In this document: piece by piece, positions 11,787 to 18,975 of the stretch
How the letters are laid out: each line of letters begins with the position of its first letter
How positions within the stretch are numbered: the stretch's first letter is position 1
Assembly: GCA_946885745.1 (NCBI GenBank)
Contig: CAMPGV010000005.1
Location: forward strand, 1-30,598
Direction of reading: 5' to 3'
Length of the DNA stretch: 30,598 bases
Source of the DNA: an uncultured Candidatus Saccharibacteria bacterium
GTDB lineage: Bacteria; Patescibacteria; Saccharimonadia; Saccharimonadales; JAEWBQ01
Notes under the pieces: generated by a model
The model's input: only the letters and a program-made list of their open reading frames with translations
Database searches by the model: none
Told to the model about the DNA's origin: nothing
Position numbers and translations under genes: made by a program

Positions 11787-14700
11787 GTGGCAAATACCAA
11801 GCCTACCGCGACTAAGCGTGTGTTCTTTACAAAAGACGACACCGCTTTGCCGCTACCGAATCTCATCGCTCACCAGAAAGACTCTTGGCGAGAATTCGTC
11901 GAGACTGGTCTGAGCGAGATTTTTGCAGAACTTAATCCAATCGAGGACTACACAGGTCAGAAGCTCGAACTGCGATTTAAGGATTATGCATTCCAAAACC
12001 CTAAGGTTACGGAACAGGACGCAAAAGAAAACAACCTTACTTTCGATGCACCACTGCACGCTAAGGTGGAGCTTACCAACAAGGTAACTGGTGAAGTTAA
12101 GGAACAGGAAATCTACCTCGGTGATTACCCATGGATGACTGATCGCGGTACGTTTGTGATCAACGGTACTGAGCGTGTCGTTGTTTCGCAGCTAATCCGT
12201 TCTGCTGGTGTCTTCTTTACTGCCGACGCTACTGCTGGCCAGAACTACTACGGCGCTAAGCTTATTCCAGGCCGTGGTGCATGGCTTGAGTTCGAGACAG
12301 CCTCAAACGGTGCGATCTACGTTAAGATTGACCGCCGCCGCAAGCTGCCAGTAACCACTCTTCTGCGCGCACTTGGTTACTCAAAGACGAGTGAAATCAA
12401 GAGTCTCTTTGAAGATACCGATACTGGTGAAGTGAAGTATATCGACGCAACTCTTGATAAAGATGCTGCTCGTGGTGTAAACGAAGCGCTCATCGAAGTG
12501 TACCGCCGTCTTCGTCCGGGTGATCTAGCGACTGTTGATAACGCTCGCAGCATGATTGAACGTATGTTCTTCGACTTCAAGCGCTTTGACTACAGCCGTG
12601 TTGGTCGCTACAAGCTTAACCAGCGCCTTGGTCTTGAAGTAGCTAACACTACCGAAAACCGTGTATTCCAAATGAGCGATCTCGTTGCCATTATTAAAGA
12701 GATCATTCGCCTCAACAACACTCAGGATCTTCCTGATGATATCGACGCGCTTTCAAACCGCCGTATCAAGCTAGTTGGTGAGCTCGTAGCTCGTCAGTTC
12801 CGCGTTGGTATGCTCCGTATGCAGCGTAACGCTATGGATCGCATGAGCATGAGCGACCTCGAAACTGTAACTCCTGGTCAGCTGATCAACGCTCGCCCGG
12901 TAGTTGCTGCCGTTCGTGAATTCTTCGCCAGCTCACAGCTTTCACAGCTGATGGACGACGTAAACCCACTTGCTGAGCTTTCACACAAGCGCCGTTTGAG
13001 CTCAATGGGTCCTGGTGGTCTTTCACGTGAGCGTGCTGGTCTCGATGTTCGTGACGCGCACCCAACTCACTACGGACGCCTTTGTTCAGTGGAAACCCCA
13101 GAAGGTGCGAACATTGGTCTCGTGCTTAACCTCGCAAGCTACGCTCGTGTTAACGAATACGGCTTTATTGAAACTCCATACCTCAAGGTTGTTGACGGCA
13201 AGGTGACTGATGAAGTTGTCTATCTTGATGCCGCCCAAGAAGTTACTGAAGTTATCGCTGAAGCTGGTGTTGAACTCAACGAAGACGGCACGTTCAAGGA
13301 TGAGCGCGTTAGTGCTCGTAACTTCCTGAACCCAGAGCAAGTTGATGCTAGTGAAGTGACCTACATGGACGCTGCGCACAAGCAGATCCTTGGTTCTACT
13401 GCGAGCCTCGTGCCATTCGTAGAGAAGGACCGTGTGGACCGTGCTCTTACCGGTTCAAACATGCAGAAGCAGGCTGTACCTCTTCTGTTCCCAGAAGCTC
13501 CAACTGTTGGTACTGGTATTGAGCGTGAAATCGCCAAGAATACCAGCCAGCTGATTACCGCTGAAGAAGACGGTGAAGTTGTTCGTGCTGACGGTGACCA
13601 GGTTCACGTTAAGTACAAGAGCGGCACTAAGATCTACGAAGTCGTTCACTTTGAAAAGAGCAACGACGATCGTTCAATCAACCAGAAGGTCCGCGTTAAT
13701 CGTGGTGATGTCGTCAAGCAGGGTGACATTCTTATCGAAGGTGCATCTGTTGCCGACGGTGAACTCGCACTTGGTCGTGACCTTACGGTTGCCTTCATGC
13801 CGTGGGGCGGTTACAACATGGACGACGCGATCGTACTTTCTGATCGTATCGTCAAGGAAGATGCGCTTACGAGCATCAACATCAAGGACTACACTGTTGA
13901 AGTCCGCGAAACCAAGCTTGGTCCAGAAATCGTCACTCGCGATATTCCAAATGTATCTGAAGAATCACTTCGTCACCTCGACGAAAACGGTATCGTTCAG
14001 GTTGGTTCTGAAGTTAAGGCCGGCGACGTGCTCGTTGGTAAGATTACTCCAAAGGGTGAGCAGGAACTCAGCTCAGAAGAGCGCCTTCTTCGTGCAATCT
14101 TTGGTGAAAAAGCCAAGGACGTTCGCGATACTTCACAGCGCATGAACAACGCTGGTGGTGGTAAGGTCGTCGGTGTTAAGATCTTCAGCCGTGAAAACGG
14201 CCACGAACTTAAAGCCGGTGTTCTTATGCAGATCCAGATCTTCGTAGCACAGCTCCGCAAGATCTCTGTCGGTGACAAGCTGGCAGGTCGTCACGGTAAC
14301 AAGGGTGTGGTCGCTCGTATCCTCCCTGCAGAAGATATGCCATTCATGGAAGACGGCACTCCAGTAGATGTCGTCTTGAACCCACTCGGTGTCCCAAGTC
14401 GTATGAACATTGGTCAGCTGTTTGAAACTCACCTTGGTATGGCTGCGCGTGCCCTTGGTTACAAGGTTGCAACGCCTCCATTCAACGGTGTGCCAAACGA
14501 AGTTATCGGTGATGAGCTTGAAAAGGCTGGTCTTGCCCGCGACGGTAAGAGCCAACTCTTCGACGGCCGTACTGGTGACGCGTTTGAAGAGCGCACGACT
14601 GTTGGTGTCATGCACATGATTAAGCTGCACCACATGGTCAGCGACAAGATCCACGCTCGTTCAACTGGTCCATACACAATGGTCACCCAGCAGCCACTCG

Positions 14701-15146
14701 GTGGTAAGGCCCAAAACGGTGGTCAGCGCTTCGGTGAGATGGAGGTGTGGGCACTGGAAGCTTACGGTGCTGCCGCAACGCTCCAGGAAATGCTTACTAT
14801 CAAGTCAGACGACGTTTACGGTCGCGCAAAGGCGTACGAATCGATCATCAAGAATGAAGCGATCGTTGGTCCAAAGCTACCTGAATCATTCAACGTCCTC
14901 GTGAAAGAACTCCAGGGTCTCGGTCTGCGTGTTGATCTGCTCGACGAATCAGAAGATGAAGTTGTCGATGCTGAGCACTTGATCGCAAACGCTGGTCCAG
15001 AAGACAAGACTGTCCCTGCTGATGTCTCATTTGTAGACGAAGACGCGGAAACTGTACTCGATGAAGCTGATGAATTCGGTGATATCGAAGACGGCATGAA
15101 CATTCAGGATATTGATGAAATTGAAACAATTAAGGAGGAGGCGTAA
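11787..15146 (+). CDS. rpoB: DNA-directed RNA polymerase beta subunit
   Basis: 1119 residues, a compact beta without the large lineage insertions of E. coli. The rifampicin-pocket region SSQLSQLMDD starts at residue 382. The positions equivalent to E. coli D516, H526 and S531 are D390, H400 and S405, all in the sensitive form. GPGGLSRERAGLDVRD and HPTHYGRLCSVETPEG follow. RLLRAIFGEKAKDVRDTS, GDKLAGRHGNKGVV and GGKAQNGGQRFGEMEVWALE are conserved beta segments near the active site and C-terminus. An acidic C-terminal tail follows. The start is GTG 11787 with AGGAG 9 nt upstream. rpoC starts 1 nt after the stop. The rplJ-rplL genes usually upstream are absent; a SemiSWEET gene is there instead. 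Confidence 0.98.
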   Translation: MANTKPTATKRVFFTKDDTALPLPNLIAHQKDSWREFVETGLSEIFAELNPIEDYTGQKLELRFKDYAFQNPKVTEQDAKENNLTFDAPLHAKVELTNKVTGEVKEQEIYLGDYPWMTDRGTFVINGTERVVVSQLIRSAGVFFTADATAGQNYYGAKLIPGRGAWLEFETASNGAIYVKIDRRRKLPVTTLLRALGYSKTSEIKSLFEDTDTGEVKYIDATLDKDAARGVNEALIEVYRRLRPGDLATVDNARSMIERMFFDFKRFDYSRVGRYKLNQRLGLEVANTTENRVFQMSDLVAIIKEIIRLNNTQDLPDDIDALSNRRIKLVGELVARQFRVGMLRMQRNAMDRMSMSDLETVTPGQLINARPVVAAVREFFASSQLSQLMDDVNPLAELSHKRRLSSMGPGGLSRERAGLDVRDAHPTHYGRLCSVETPEGANIGLVLNLASYARVNEYGFIETPYLKVVDGKVTDEVVYLDAAQEVTEVIAEAGVELNEDGTFKDERVSARNFLNPEQVDASEVTYMDAAHKQILGSTASLVPFVEKDRVDRALTGSNMQKQAVPLLFPEAPTVGTGIEREIAKNTSQLITAEEDGEVVRADGDQVHVKYKSGTKIYEVVHFEKSNDDRSINQKVRVNRGDVVKQGDILIEGASVADGELALGRDLTVAFMPWGGYNMDDAIVLSDRIVKEDALTSINIKDYTVEVRETKLGPEIVTRDIPNVSEESLRHLDENGIVQVGSEVKAGDVLVGKITPKGEQELSSEERLLRAIFGEKAKDVRDTSQRMNNAGGGKVVGVKIFSRENGHELKAGVLMQIQIFVAQLRKISVGDKLAGRHGNKGVVARILPAEDMPFMEDGTPVDVVLNPLGVPSRMNIGQLFETHLGMAARALGYKVATPPFNGVPNEVIGDELEKAGLARDGKSQLFDGRTGDAFEERTTVGVMHMIKLHHMVSDKIHARSTGPYTMVTQQPLGGKAQNGGQRFGEMEVWALEAYGAAATLQEMLTIKSDDVYGRAKAYESIIKNEAIVGPKLPESFNVLVKELQGLGLRVDLLDESEDEVVDAEHLIANAGPEDKTVPADVSFVDEDAETVLDEADEFGDIEDGMNIQDIDEIETIKEEA

Positions 15147-15147
15147 G

Positions 15148-18100
15148 ATGAGTCGAGTTGTCGCATCAAACGGCATTGCTGATTTCGACGCAGTGCGCCT
15201 AGCTGTAGCCAGCCCTGAGGATATGCTCAAGTGGAGCTACGGTGAGGTCACTAAGCCAGAAACTATCAACTACCGCACCCAGAAGCCAGAGCGCGACGGT
15301 CTGTTCTGTGAGCGTATCTTTGGTCCAGTCAAGGACATCAACCCACACGACAGCAAGCTAAAGGGTGTTCGTTCACGCGAAGCTGCAGTCGACAAGAACG
15401 GTGAGCTCGTTACGAAGAGCATCGTTCGTCGTGAGCGCATGGGCCACATCAGCCTGGCTGCGCCAGTTGCGCACATCTGGTTTATGCGTGGTACTCCAAG
15501 CGCAATGAGCTTGTTGCTTGGTATTACCGTTCGTAACCTCGAGCGTATCGCTTACTTTGCTACCTATGTCATCCTTGATGTAGATGCTGAAAAGCGCGAT
15601 CAGTACCTTGCTGATCTTGAAGCTGAAACCGAAGCTGGCCGCATGGCTATCAAGATGCGCTTTGAAAAAGAAGCTGAAGTTGAAGGTGCTGACATTAAGG
15701 CACTTGCCGAACAGCAGTCACGTGAAGTTGAAGACCTAAACGAAAGCTACACACTGAAGAAGTCTCAGCTTGAAAGCCTCGTAAAGGGCGCTCTTCTCAA
15801 CGAAACTGACTACCGTAACCTCCCTGAAGAGTACGAAGAACTCGTTAAGGTTGGTATGGGTGGTACAGCCCTCAAGGCTCTTCTCGACGAAATCGACCTG
15901 CCTGTTCTTATCAAGCAGCTGTCTGAAGAAGTTGAAAGTGCTAAGGGTCAGCGTGAGAAGAAGCTTCTAAAGCGCCTCAAGGTGCTTGAAGGTATGCACG
16001 CTGCCGGCATCAAGCCAAGCAGCCTAACGCTTACTGTTCTGCCTGTTATCCCACCGGACCTTCGTCCAATGGTGCAGCTGACCGGTGGTCGCTTCGCAAC
16101 CTCAGACCTTAACGACCTTTATCGTCGTGTTATCAACCGTAACAACCGTCTTAAGAAGCTGATTGAGCTCAACGCCCCTGAAGTTATCCGCCGCAACGAA
16201 ATGCGTATGCTCCAGGAAGCTGTCGACTCACTCGTAGACAACTCAGCTGCCCGCGGTGGTCGTGCTGTGAACGCCACTGGTGGTCGCCGCCGCCTCAAGA
16301 GTATCAGCGACATGCTCAAGGGTAAGCAGGGTCGTTTCCGTCAGAACCTTCTCGGTAAGCGTGTTGACTACTCTGGTCGTTCAGTTATCGTCGTTGGTCC
16401 TAAGCTTAAGATTCACCAGTGTGGTCTGCCAAAGCAAATGGCTCTCGAGCTATTTAAGCCATTCGTCATTAGCTGGTTGATCCGTGGCGAGCACGCACAC
16501 AACATCCGTTCAGCAACTCGTCTGATCGAGGCTGGTGATGCACTCGTCTGGGACGCACTTGACGCTGTGATTGAAGGTAAGTACGTTCTCTTGAACCGTG
16601 CGCCGTCACTCCACCGTCTATCAATCCAGGCCTTCCAGCCAGTGCTCGTAGAAGGTAAGGCTATCCAGCTCCACCCACTTGTCGCCAACGGTTTCAACGC
16701 CGACTACGACGGTGACCAAATGGCTGTTCACCTTCCACTTTCTGACGAAGCGCAGGCTGAAGCTCGCGAATTGATGTCAGCTACAAACAACTTGCTGAAG
16801 CCAGCCGATGGTTCACCGGTACTCAGTATCGGACAGGACGTTGTCCTTGGTAACTACTACCTGACTTATGACAAGCCAGGCGCGCAGACTGATACTGTAA
16901 AGCCGTTTAGCTCTGTCTACGAAGCCGAAATGGCCTACGACAAGGGTACTATCCAGCTTCAGACTCCTATCCGCGTCTTCGCTAAGGGTGAAATCCGTGA
17001 AACTACTCTCGGTCGTGTTTTCTTCAACGAAATCCTTCCAGAGGACTTCCCGTATGACAACTCAGTCCAGAGCAAGAAGCAGCTTAAGAAGGTTCTTGGA
17101 CTTGTCTTTGACAAGTACGGTGCTGAGCTAACTGCCCAGACTGCTGACCGCATGAAGGGTCTTGCATTCCGTTTCGCAACTGTCGCCGCTATCTCAACCG
17201 GTAAAGACGACTACCTGCACTTTGAAGAAATTAGCCAGTTCATCGCAGAAGGTGACGCCAAAGCAGCTCTCATCTCTGAGCAGTTCGACCAAGGTCTTAT
17301 CACTGATGATGAGCGATACAACCTTACTGTTGCTGCGTGGCGCGCAGTTGACCGCCAGGTCACTGAGTTCCTCCAGGACCAGCTCAAGAACATGGACACC
17401 AGTATTTCTGTCATGGTCAACTCTGGTGCTCGTGGTGATATCTCAAACGTGAAGCTAGCGAGCGCAATGATCGGTCTCCAGGTGGATGCTACCAACAAGG
17501 AAATCGAGCTTCCGATTCGTTCAAGCTTTAAGGACGGTCTGAGTTCACTTGAGCAGTTCGTCGCCACCCGTGGTGCACGTAAGGGTCTTATCGACACCGC
17601 TCTTAAGACTGCTGACTCAGGTTACCTGACTCGTCGTCTGGTTGATGTGTCACAGGACGTCTTCACCGTGGAAGCCGAAGAAGAAGATGAAGGCTACGCT
17701 ATTTACCGCAGCGAATCAGAAATGACGATGATCGACTTCGGTAACCGTCTTGCTGGTCGCTACACTGCTGAAGAAGTTCAGGGCCACGTTGGTAAGGACG
17801 AGCTCATTACTCGCGCCATTGCTGACAGCATTGAAGCTGACTCAGAAGTCACAAGCGTAAAGATCCAAAGCGTTCTTTCGACTAAGAACCTCCGTGGTAT
17901 TCCACAGAAGAGCTACGGTATCGATATGGCTACCGGTCACCTGATTGCTAAGGCGCAGCCAGTTGGTGTTATCGCCGCACAGTCAGTCGGTGAGCCTGGT
18001 ACTCAGTTGACGCTTCGTACCTTCCACGCCGGTGGTGTGGCTGGTGGTGACATCACCCAGGGTCTCCCTCGTGTTGAAGAGCTCTTTGAAGCTCGTACAC

Positions 18101-18975
18101 CAAAGGGCCAGGCCTACATTACTGAAGTAACTGGTCTAGTAGATACTTGGGAAGATGGCAAGAAGTACATCGTTCAGGTAACTCCAGAAGCTGGCCACGT
18201 TGAGCGTATCGCCCTCGAAGGTCGTACGGTTAACGTTAAGGCTGGCAGCAACGTAAAGGTTGGTGACGTTCTCGCTACCGCCGAAGGTGAAGCGAAGCCA
18301 CTTGTTGCACCATTTGACGGTGTCGTAGAAGTTGCTGAAGATACACTGGTTCTGGCTGCAAATGCTGGCGCACCAGTTCGCTACGAAATCCCTGGCACGA
18401 CTCAGCTCGTTGTATCAGCTGGTGACACCGTAGAAGCAGGCGACCGCCTGACGATCGGTTCACTCAACTTGCACGACCTGATGCGCCTCAAGGGTACCGA
18501 AGCTACTCAGCGTTACATCATCAACGAAGTTCTGCGTATCTACGCCGCACAGGGTCAAGACGTTGCCGACAAGCACCTCGAGATCATCGTGCGTCAGATG
18601 TTCAGCCGTGTTCAGGTTGAAGATCCAGGTGACAGCTCATTTGTTACCGGCGACATTGTCTCTAAGGCTGCTGTTGTCGAAGCGAATGCCGAATTGGCTG
18701 CAGAGGGTAAGGATCTTATCCGCTACACCCAGCTGCTCCTCGGTATCACCAAGGTCTCTATCTGGAGCGATAGCTGGCTATCAGCTGCGTCCTTCCAGGA
18801 CACAACTCGCGTGCTCATCAACGCTGCAACTAGCGGCCGCGCTGACCGCCTCCACGGCCTCAAGGAAAATGTGATCATCGGTCGCAAGATCCCTGTAGGT
18901 ACGGGTGCAGCCCGCGATGATGTTTCAGAGGATTTCGCCGAAGAAATCGCTGAAGACGTCGAATTTGCCGCCTAG
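15148..18975 (+). CDS. rpoC: DNA-directed RNA polymerase beta' subunit, lacking the zinc-site cysteines
   Basis: 1275 residues. ATG 15148 follows AGGAGGAGG and gives the family-like N-terminus; the frame is open 12 codons further up inside rpoB. Conserved parts: NYRTQKPERDGLFC, VRRERMGHI, PPDLRPMVQLTGGRFATSDL, GKRVDYSGRSVIVVGP, the catalytic loop NADYDGD (517-523), GARKGLIDTALKTADSGY (trigger-loop region) and GVIAAQSVGEPGTQLTLRTF. The N-terminal zinc ribbon (normally four Cys between FGPVKD and VRRERMGH) and the second zinc site (one Cys after RRLVDV, three before GVIAAQS) contain no cysteine. I count only two Cys in the regions examined (C54 and one in IHQCGLP). The catalytic NADFDGD reads NADYDGD. 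An expanded charged helical region lies at about 150-260. Confidence 0.98.
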   Translation: MSRVVASNGIADFDAVRLAVASPEDMLKWSYGEVTKPETINYRTQKPERDGLFCERIFGPVKDINPHDSKLKGVRSREAAVDKNGELVTKSIVRRERMGHISLAAPVAHIWFMRGTPSAMSLLLGITVRNLERIAYFATYVILDVDAEKRDQYLADLEAETEAGRMAIKMRFEKEAEVEGADIKALAEQQSREVEDLNESYTLKKSQLESLVKGALLNETDYRNLPEEYEELVKVGMGGTALKALLDEIDLPVLIKQLSEEVESAKGQREKKLLKRLKVLEGMHAAGIKPSSLTLTVLPVIPPDLRPMVQLTGGRFATSDLNDLYRRVINRNNRLKKLIELNAPEVIRRNEMRMLQEAVDSLVDNSAARGGRAVNATGGRRRLKSISDMLKGKQGRFRQNLLGKRVDYSGRSVIVVGPKLKIHQCGLPKQMALELFKPFVISWLIRGEHAHNIRSATRLIEAGDALVWDALDAVIEGKYVLLNRAPSLHRLSIQAFQPVLVEGKAIQLHPLVANGFNADYDGDQMAVHLPLSDEAQAEARELMSATNNLLKPADGSPVLSIGQDVVLGNYYLTYDKPGAQTDTVKPFSSVYEAEMAYDKGTIQLQTPIRVFAKGEIRETTLGRVFFNEILPEDFPYDNSVQSKKQLKKVLGLVFDKYGAELTAQTADRMKGLAFRFATVAAISTGKDDYLHFEEISQFIAEGDAKAALISEQFDQGLITDDERYNLTVAAWRAVDRQVTEFLQDQLKNMDTSISVMVNSGARGDISNVKLASAMIGLQVDATNKEIELPIRSSFKDGLSSLEQFVATRGARKGLIDTALKTADSGYLTRRLVDVSQDVFTVEAEEEDEGYAIYRSESEMTMIDFGNRLAGRYTAEEVQGHVGKDELITRAIADSIEADSEVTSVKIQSVLSTKNLRGIPQKSYGIDMATGHLIAKAQPVGVIAAQSVGEPGTQLTLRTFHAGGVAGGDITQGLPRVEELFEARTPKGQAYITEVTGLVDTWEDGKKYIVQVTPEAGHVERIALEGRTVNVKAGSNVKVGDVLATAEGEAKPLVAPFDGVVEVAEDTLVLAANAGAPVRYEIPGTTQLVVSAGDTVEAGDRLTIGSLNLHDLMRLKGTEATQRYIINEVLRIYAAQGQDVADKHLEIIVRQMFSRVQVEDPGDSSFVTGDIVSKAAVVEANAELAAEGKDLIRYTQLLLGITKVSIWSDSWLSAASFQDTTRVLINAATSGRADRLHGLKENVIIGRKIPVGTGAARDDVSEDFAEEIAEDVEFAA

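What the first reader, a model, noticed from the sequence alone, without database searches (positions are those of the whole stretch)
15331..17930. RNA polymerase beta' has lost both structural zinc sites
In most bacterial beta' subunits, four Cys lie between FGPVKD and VRRERMGH (zinc ribbon), and a second site uses one Cys after RRLVDV plus three Cys shortly before GVIAAQS. Here the first region (residues about 64-92) and the second (about 841-850 and 908-925) contain no Cys, while all flanking motifs align cleanly. The segments are replaced, not deleted: for example STKNLRGIPQKSYGID stands where the three-Cys cluster belongs. This implies a zinc-free clamp, and suggests adaptation to zinc scarcity or loss of partners contacting the ribbon.
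Basis: partly seen in the sequence, partly recalled or inferred. Interest (0 to 1): 0.75.

Follow-up and report, generated by a model that had tools for sequence, protein, structure and literature searches.

The report
Zinc-free RNA polymerase in Saccharibacteria
A group of tiny bacteria has lost the zinc-holding residues normally built into the enzyme that reads genes, apparently as one part of a wider removal of structural zinc from its proteins, which makes it a natural test of what that zinc is for.

Summary
Confirmed. In the window's RpoC (15148-18975) all eight zinc cysteines are replaced; beta' has two Cys in all. Of 228 distinct RpoC, 110 keep all eight ligands; 118, the lost clade within Saccharimonadia, keep none at site 1 and at most two at site 2; no mixed state was seen. 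A tree needs one loss. Of 286 Patescibacteria genomes sampled, 278 gave an RpoC: 255 have the first knuckle, 22 (this clade) lack it, one is unresolved. The zinc-less ribbon stays as conserved, relative to its protein, as zinc ribbons do, and keeps its basic face; site 2 does not. Best reading: a stepwise purge of structural zinc that spared some repair ribbons and the catalytic zinc motifs checked. The driver (zinc scarcity?) is inferred, metal content is unmeasured, and the structure models were too poor to use.

The parts
15148..18975 (+). rpoC, RNA polymerase beta' (1275 residues from the ATG; ORF opens at TTG 15112)
   Evidence: five Pfam RNA_pol_Rpb1 domains over cut-off; the 60 best PDB matches listed are beta' (or 'beta') chains; NADYDGD motif in the translation
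15337..15423 (+). zinc-less N-terminal ribbon (site 1), INPHDSKLKGVRSREAAVDKNGELVTKSI; ligand positions replaced by P, D, V, N
17650..17703 (+). first arm of zinc-less site 2 (after RRLVDV); position of C814 replaced (E, gap)
17878..17925 (+). second arm of zinc-less site 2, STKNLRGIPQKSYGID; C888, C895, C898 replaced by T, P, S
11787..15146 (+). rpoB, RNA polymerase beta, immediately upstream; one Cys in 1119 residues

Best explanation
RNA polymerase of the main Saccharimonadia lineage no longer binds zinc in beta'. Both sites were lost on one branch inside the class. In site 1 each zinc knuckle was exchanged for a metal-free turn (mostly PHD-S/N/A-K and DK-N/E-G) without changing the length of the hairpin or its basic face, so the ribbon most likely still stands at the RNA exit channel and contacts nucleic acid. 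In site 2, C895 and C898 went first, while C888 and sometimes C814 lingered in some lineages. This is one part of a stepwise purge of structural zinc from transcription, translation and some other proteins; the catalytic zinc motifs checked and several DNA-repair zinc ribbons were kept. Shown: the RpoC losses, their place on the tree, and, in the genomes compared, the direction and the CxxC specificity of the wider losses. Inferred: that the protein binds no metal, that the hairpin keeps its shape and role, and that the advantage is a smaller zinc quota in cells with little zinc uptake.
For: Eight ligands, or none at site 1 with none to two at site 2, never mixed, in 228 RpoC. One loss on a tree of 80 rows built without the zinc columns; lost clade (42 rows) SH-aLRT 99, sister L103/L192/L193 with all eight Cys. 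Phylum sample: 278 of 286 genomes with RpoC = 255 with the first knuckle, 22 without, 1 unresolved. Ribbon mean top-residue frequency 0.925 against 0.817 gene-wide in the lost clade; D72, R81, E82, A84 invariant in the lost clade and different from the intact Saccharimonadia majority. G343 against G100, 334 reciprocal pairs, one skipped for length: CxxC Cys 57 only in G100 and 3 only in G343, isolated Cys 293 against 241, Fisher p 5e-11; 11 proteins against 0 with three or more CxxC Cys lost. NCBIfam names: PilB-like x3 (below the model cut-off), uS14, RecR, NrdR, GlyRS, PheS, IleRS, bL36. In the earliest branch G073, uS14, bL36, RecR and GlyRS already lack the zinc set while NrdR, IleRS and PriA keep it. 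NrdR main copy: CxxC pairs kept in 9 of 9 zinc-keeping genomes that have it and in 9 of 14 lost-clade genomes, gone in the 5 inner ones.
Against: No metal measurement. The AlphaFold2 models were poor (mean pLDDT 60 lost, 63 intact; ribbon about 40-45 and 43-65), so the metal-free turn is read from sequence only. Zinc-type ribbons are also more conserved than their proteins (0.892 against 0.776 in intact Saccharimonadia, 0.871 against 0.687 in the other intact sequences), so the ribbon figure shows maintained constraint, not extra constraint; and the two arms of site 2 in the lost clade are below the gene mean (0.637 and 0.764), which looks more like decay. The proteome comparison rests on one lost genome (900 kb), one intact genome (747 kb) and 300 kb of a third; G073 against G100 alone is not significant (16:6 against 126:120, p 0.07; 3 proteins against 1). 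UvrA, DnaJ, RadA, PriA and Fpg keep their ribbons, and RecR and NrdR, usually scarce proteins (recalled), were lost, so abundance alone does not explain which went. By match range uS14 seems to be in the long form in two zinc-keeping genomes too (G299, G318, letters not read). ZIP importers are not rarer in the lost clade.
Confidence: 0.8

Rival explanations
1. Neutral or drift-driven loss: the sites decayed in small populations of host-dependent cells and the loss has no advantage.
For: Remnant Cys at C888, or C888 and C814, in 13 of 118 lost-clade RpoC look like stepwise decay; the arms of site 2 are less conserved than the protein mean; genomes are small.
Against: Other Patescibacteria, also with small genomes, keep the first knuckle (255 of 278 with an RpoC match); the zinc-less ribbon stays more conserved than the protein mean with several invariant residues; in G343 against G100 the losses fall on CxxC motifs and not on Cys in general.
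Confidence: 0.2
2. Protection against thiophilic toxic metals or oxidants: Cys4 sites were removed because they are attacked, not because zinc is scarce.
For: The losses hit CxxC motifs in particular, which both pressures would predict.
Against: Isolated Cys are nearly even (293:241), overall Cys content is not lower in G343 (0.57% against 0.52%), and UvrA, DnaJ, RadA, PriA keep many CxxC motifs.
Confidence: 0.2
3. Metal swap: the ribbon binds another metal through the conserved H71, D72, E82 and D86.
For: H71 95%, D72 100%, E82 100%, D86 100% in 118 sequences.
Against: The last ligand position is N, E or K; P70 and V85 cannot bind metal; D86 is also invariant in zinc-keeping Saccharimonadia. 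The geometry could not be tested.
Confidence: 0.07
4. Loss of a partner: a factor or RNA that used the ribbon disappeared and the ribbon followed.
For: The ribbon is a known docking site (putRNA; PMC9378689, passages read). No search for partners was made here.
Against: The ribbon is retained at full length with its basic face, and site 2 and unrelated proteins lost zinc motifs as well.
Confidence: 0.08

Closest known systems
Canonical bacterial RNA polymerase beta' (RpoC) with zinc sites C70-C72-C85-C88 and C814-C888-C895-C898 (E. coli)
   Same: Same domains and conserved motifs; same length of ribbon hairpin; gene directly after rpoB
   Different: None of the eight zinc ligands in the window's protein; other residues fixed in the ribbon
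Zinc-independent variants of zinc proteins used in zinc sparing, such as paralogues of ribosomal proteins under Zur control (PMC2770081, passages read)
   Same: Loss of the zinc ligands in an otherwise recognisable family member; here also uS14 and bL36
   Different: There the zinc-free form is an inducible extra copy; here five of six lost genomes have one RpoC match, and the sixth has one gene in two neighbouring pieces, so the zinc-free form replaced the zinc form; in the genomes compared it reaches RNA polymerase, RecR, NrdR, GatB, tRNA synthetases and PilB-like ATPases
Mycoplasma RpoC with an irregular first ribbon (L371, L372)
   Same: Site 1 departs from the usual spacing
   Different: Four Cys remain in site 1 (CxxC, later C-x5-C) and site 2 is intact

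Membership tests
Bacterial RNA polymerase beta' (RpoC) | RNA_pol_Rpb1 domains 1-5 in order | tested here: met
   all five over the Pfam cut-off
Bacterial RNA polymerase beta' (RpoC) | catalytic NAD(F/Y)DGD motif | tested here: met
   NADYDGD in the translation
Bacterial RNA polymerase beta' (RpoC) | N-terminal Cys4 zinc ribbon (usual, not taken as defining) | tested here: not met
   P, D, V, N at the ligand positions
Bacterial RNA polymerase beta' (RpoC) | second Cys4 zinc site (usual, not taken as defining) | tested here: not met
   E (or gap), T, P, S
Zinc-sparing (C-) replacement protein | zinc ligands absent while the family profile is met | tested here: met
   RpoC; in G343 uS14, RecR, NrdR, bL36 over an NCBIfam cut-off without the CxxC pairs
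Zinc-sparing (C-) replacement protein | inducible second copy beside a zinc-type copy | tested here: not met
   one RpoC match in five of six lost genomes; in the sixth (G005) two neighbouring pieces of one gene
Zinc-sparing (C-) replacement protein | Zur control | not tested
   no regulator search was made
Zinc-free protein | no zinc in the purified enzyme | not testable with these tools
   needs metal analysis

The most novel reading that the evidence does not exclude
The main Saccharimonadia lineage has a wholly zinc-free RNA polymerase and a core gene-expression apparatus largely stripped of structural zinc (uS14, bL36, several tRNA synthetases, GatB, NrdR, RecR): as far as my searches reach, the first bacterial lineage seen to have turned these near-universal zinc ribbons into metal-free turns in place, in a recoverable order on the tree, while keeping catalytic zinc.
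Probability: 0.65. Interest if true: 0.85.

Novelty: new variant of a known kind. Interest (0 to 1): 0.76.

Why it matters
The beta' zinc ribbon is close to universal in bacteria (recalled, and borne out in the sample here), and its role in RNA exit, pausing and termination has been studied largely through mutants that damage it. Here evolution removed the metal but kept the hairpin in an enzyme that must work, and zinc-keeping sister lineages are known, so the question of what the metal does can be tested by swapping ribbons. At the level of the cell it suggests that a bacterium can lower its zinc need by permanent redesign of its proteins and not by switching paralogues. The genomes read give an order: RNA polymerase, bL36, uS14, RecR and GlyRS early (in G073), NrdR and IleRS later (in G343; NrdR in five inner genomes).

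Tried and rejected
Structure prediction of ORF residues 21-1039 of the window RpoC with 47 lost-clade rows, and of L103 with 29 intact rows, gave models too poor to use; no fold search was run. Overall cysteine avoidance was rejected (Cys 0.57% in G343 against 0.52% in G100; isolated Cys 293:241). Freedom from all zinc was rejected: UvrA, DnaJ, RadA, PriA and Fpg keep their CxxC motifs in G343, and a ThrRS and several HExxH proteins keep their catalytic motifs (names recalled from motifs). Loss of zinc import as the cause was not supported: ABC-3 in 4 of 25 genomes (3 lost, 1 intact; 13 of 14 control genomes), ZIP over the cut-off in 13 of 25 (9 of 14 lost, 4 of 11 intact; 7 of 14 controls). 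A loose scan by recalled motifs found a bL31 with CxxC pairs in G100 and none in G343, and bL33 without CxxC pairs in G100, G343 and G073; neither is counted. The G343 hit of the ribbon pattern lies about 93 kb from its rpoC and was dropped, so 28 of 392, not 29, are counted; the pattern demands K after KY, so 28 is a minimum. For some searches the place of each hit was not held against rpoC, so a few of the 255 could be off-target. In one search my NrdR script misread five reverse-strand loci; one search repeats it by tblastn and replaces it. Two loci too short for RpoC (L235, L236) were dropped before the counts, and one long pair was skipped. Literature: ten searches of the open library listed no paper whose title or abstract start reports zinc-less RNA polymerase in Saccharibacteria; only listings and the passages were seen, and most subscription papers are not held there.

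Full report
What was checked. The window encodes RpoB (11787-15146) and RpoC (ATG at 15148, stop at 18975). The 80 best loci of the genome collection are mostly titled Saccharibacteria, up to 89% identical. The eight zinc-ligand positions of E. coli (numbers recalled; the aligned E. coli sequence L221 has Cys at all eight) read P, D, V, N and E, T, P, S. The ribbon has no gap. beta' has two Cys in all and beta one, so there is no replacement Cys4 site in either large subunit; alpha, omega and sigma were not examined.

How general it is. In the 80 nearest loci no ribbon has a Cys. I then read RpoC from part of a phylum sample and part of a class sample. Of 242 sequences on hand 240 gave a usable RpoC, 228 after removal of copies with an identical core: 110 have all eight ligands; 118 have none at site 1 and none (105), one (9, always C888) or two (4, always C814 and C888) at site 2. 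No sequence has one site intact and the other lost.

In the phylum sample of 286 genomes, 278 gave an RpoC match. Of these, 22 are the lost clade (L081-L102, read) and 225 have CxCGKYK. Of the other 31, six were read and have KYR in its place with the Cys kept (L111, L115, L150, L157, L161, L171), 24 have CxCGKY followed by R or S by pattern, and one (G259, a partial match) is unresolved. The patterns test the first knuckle only, and the place of each hit was not held against rpoC. In the class sample at least 28 of 392 genomes have the first knuckle (one off-target hit dropped).

Outside the phylum, E. coli has all eight. Of 12 further named records (from 73 with a match in the plasmid collection), nine gave a full-length RpoC: Fusobacteriota, Bacteroidota, Actinomycetota (2), Pseudomonadota, Bacillota (2), Mycoplasmatota (2). 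All nine keep four Cys at site 2; at site 1 seven have the standard four and the two mycoplasmas have four with other spacing. The Ca. Stammera fragment covers site 2 and keeps it. The Limosilactobacillus reading keeps site 1 and C814 and then leaves the frame (H at the place of C888, nothing after). The Calothrix RpoC2 piece shows Cys at the places of C814, C895 and C898.

When it happened. A tree of 80 RpoC without the zinc columns needs a single change; the lost clade (42 rows, SH-aLRT 99) is sister to L103, L192, L193, which have all eight Cys and come from the same class. It is a quick LG+G4 tree with some long outgroup branches. C888 remnants are scattered over several lost lineages, which fits late decay of site 2 better than repeated regain, though regain is not excluded.

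Decay or redesign. In 118 lost-clade sequences the ribbon (E. coli 66-96) has a mean top-residue frequency of 0.925 against 0.817 for the protein. Zinc-type ribbons show a like excess (0.892 against 0.776; 0.871 against 0.687), so the loss of zinc did not relax the ribbon. D72, G77, R79, R81, E82, A84, D86, G89 and T93 are at 100%; of these D72, R81, E82 and A84 differ from the majority of zinc-keeping Saccharimonadia. K74 and K76 are at 97% or more. The second knuckle became D-K-(N/E/K)-G, a common turn sequence (recalled). In E. coli L78 and K79 of the ribbon touch putRNA (PMC9378689, passages). I read this as a metal-free hairpin that still contacts nucleic acid; the models could not test it. 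Site 2 is different: its two arms (808-818 and 886-900) have means of 0.637 and 0.764, below the protein mean, so there the loss looks more like plain decay.

The wider pattern. I compared G343 (among the nearest rows to the window on the tree; 900 of 905 kb) with G100:C2 (747 kb, zinc-keeping sister). bL36 was found by motif. Names come from NCBIfam, except GatB and ThrRS (recalled from motifs). In the second pass, 334 pairs on 900 kb, one skipped for length, CxxC Cys were 57 only in G100 and 3 only in G343, with 54 shared; isolated Cys were 293 and 241, with 140 shared (Fisher p 5e-11). Eleven proteins lost three or more CxxC Cys in G343, none in G100; one of the eleven (A859/B232, 25% identity) may be a different enzyme type, and another (A525/B113) is unnamed.

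The order of loss. In the first 300 kb of G073, the earliest branch of the lost clade, uS14, bL36, RecR and GlyRS already lack the zinc set (uS14 and RecR keep single Cys), while NrdR, IleRS and PriA keep theirs. Over 159 pairs of G073 and G100 the Cys test is not significant (16:6 against 126:120, p 0.07; 3 proteins against 1). In the NrdR panel of 25 genomes the main copy keeps both CxxC pairs in the nine zinc-keeping genomes that have it (of 11; G295 has only the second, divergent copy and G306 no match) and in nine of 14 lost-clade genomes; it has none in G001, G343, G006, G250 and G005, which lie in the inner part of the tree. The 120 listed nearest RecR of the public protein set, all 84% or more identical to the query, have no CxxC. 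So the purge was stepwise.

What it means. Scarcity as the driver is the simplest common cause for losses in unrelated folds, and ABC-3 importers are rare in the class panel (4 of 25 genomes against 13 of 14 controls), but on both sides of the loss, and ZIP importers are present in most lost genomes of the panel. Much of the stored zinc of E. coli is believed to be in ribosomes (PMC4424684, passage), and zinc-free paralogues under Zur are known (PMC2770081, passages); a fixed, in-place loss that includes RNA polymerase was not found in the searches listed under Tried and rejected.

Noticed in passing
L371, L372 (Mesomycoplasma hyorhinis, Mycoplasmopsis cynos RpoC): The first zinc ribbon of these RpoC has unusual spacing (CxxC, later C-x5-C), while site 2 is standard.
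   Followed up: no
L200, L203, L211, L216: Four lost-clade RpoC keep exactly C814 and C888 of site 2, a two-cysteine remnant that might form a disulphide or bind metal weakly.
   Followed up: partly
L043, L054: Records titled Chloroflexi and Nomurabacteria carry RpoC of the Saccharibacterial zinc-less type (86% and 73% identity to the window), so the titles are probably wrong.
   Followed up: no
L363-L369 and unfetched places: Many panel genomes, zinc-keeping and lost-clade, have a second, divergent NrdR-like protein (22-36% identity to the query); the seven copies read have their own CxxC pairs.
   Followed up: no
window 15112-15148: The longest rpoC ORF starts at TTG 15112 inside rpoB; the ATG at 15148, directly after the rpoB stop codon, is the more likely start.
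   Followed up: partly
25-genome panel: ABC-3 (Znu/Mnt-type) permeases are rare in the Saccharimonadia panel, zinc-keeping or not (4 of 25).
   Followed up: partly
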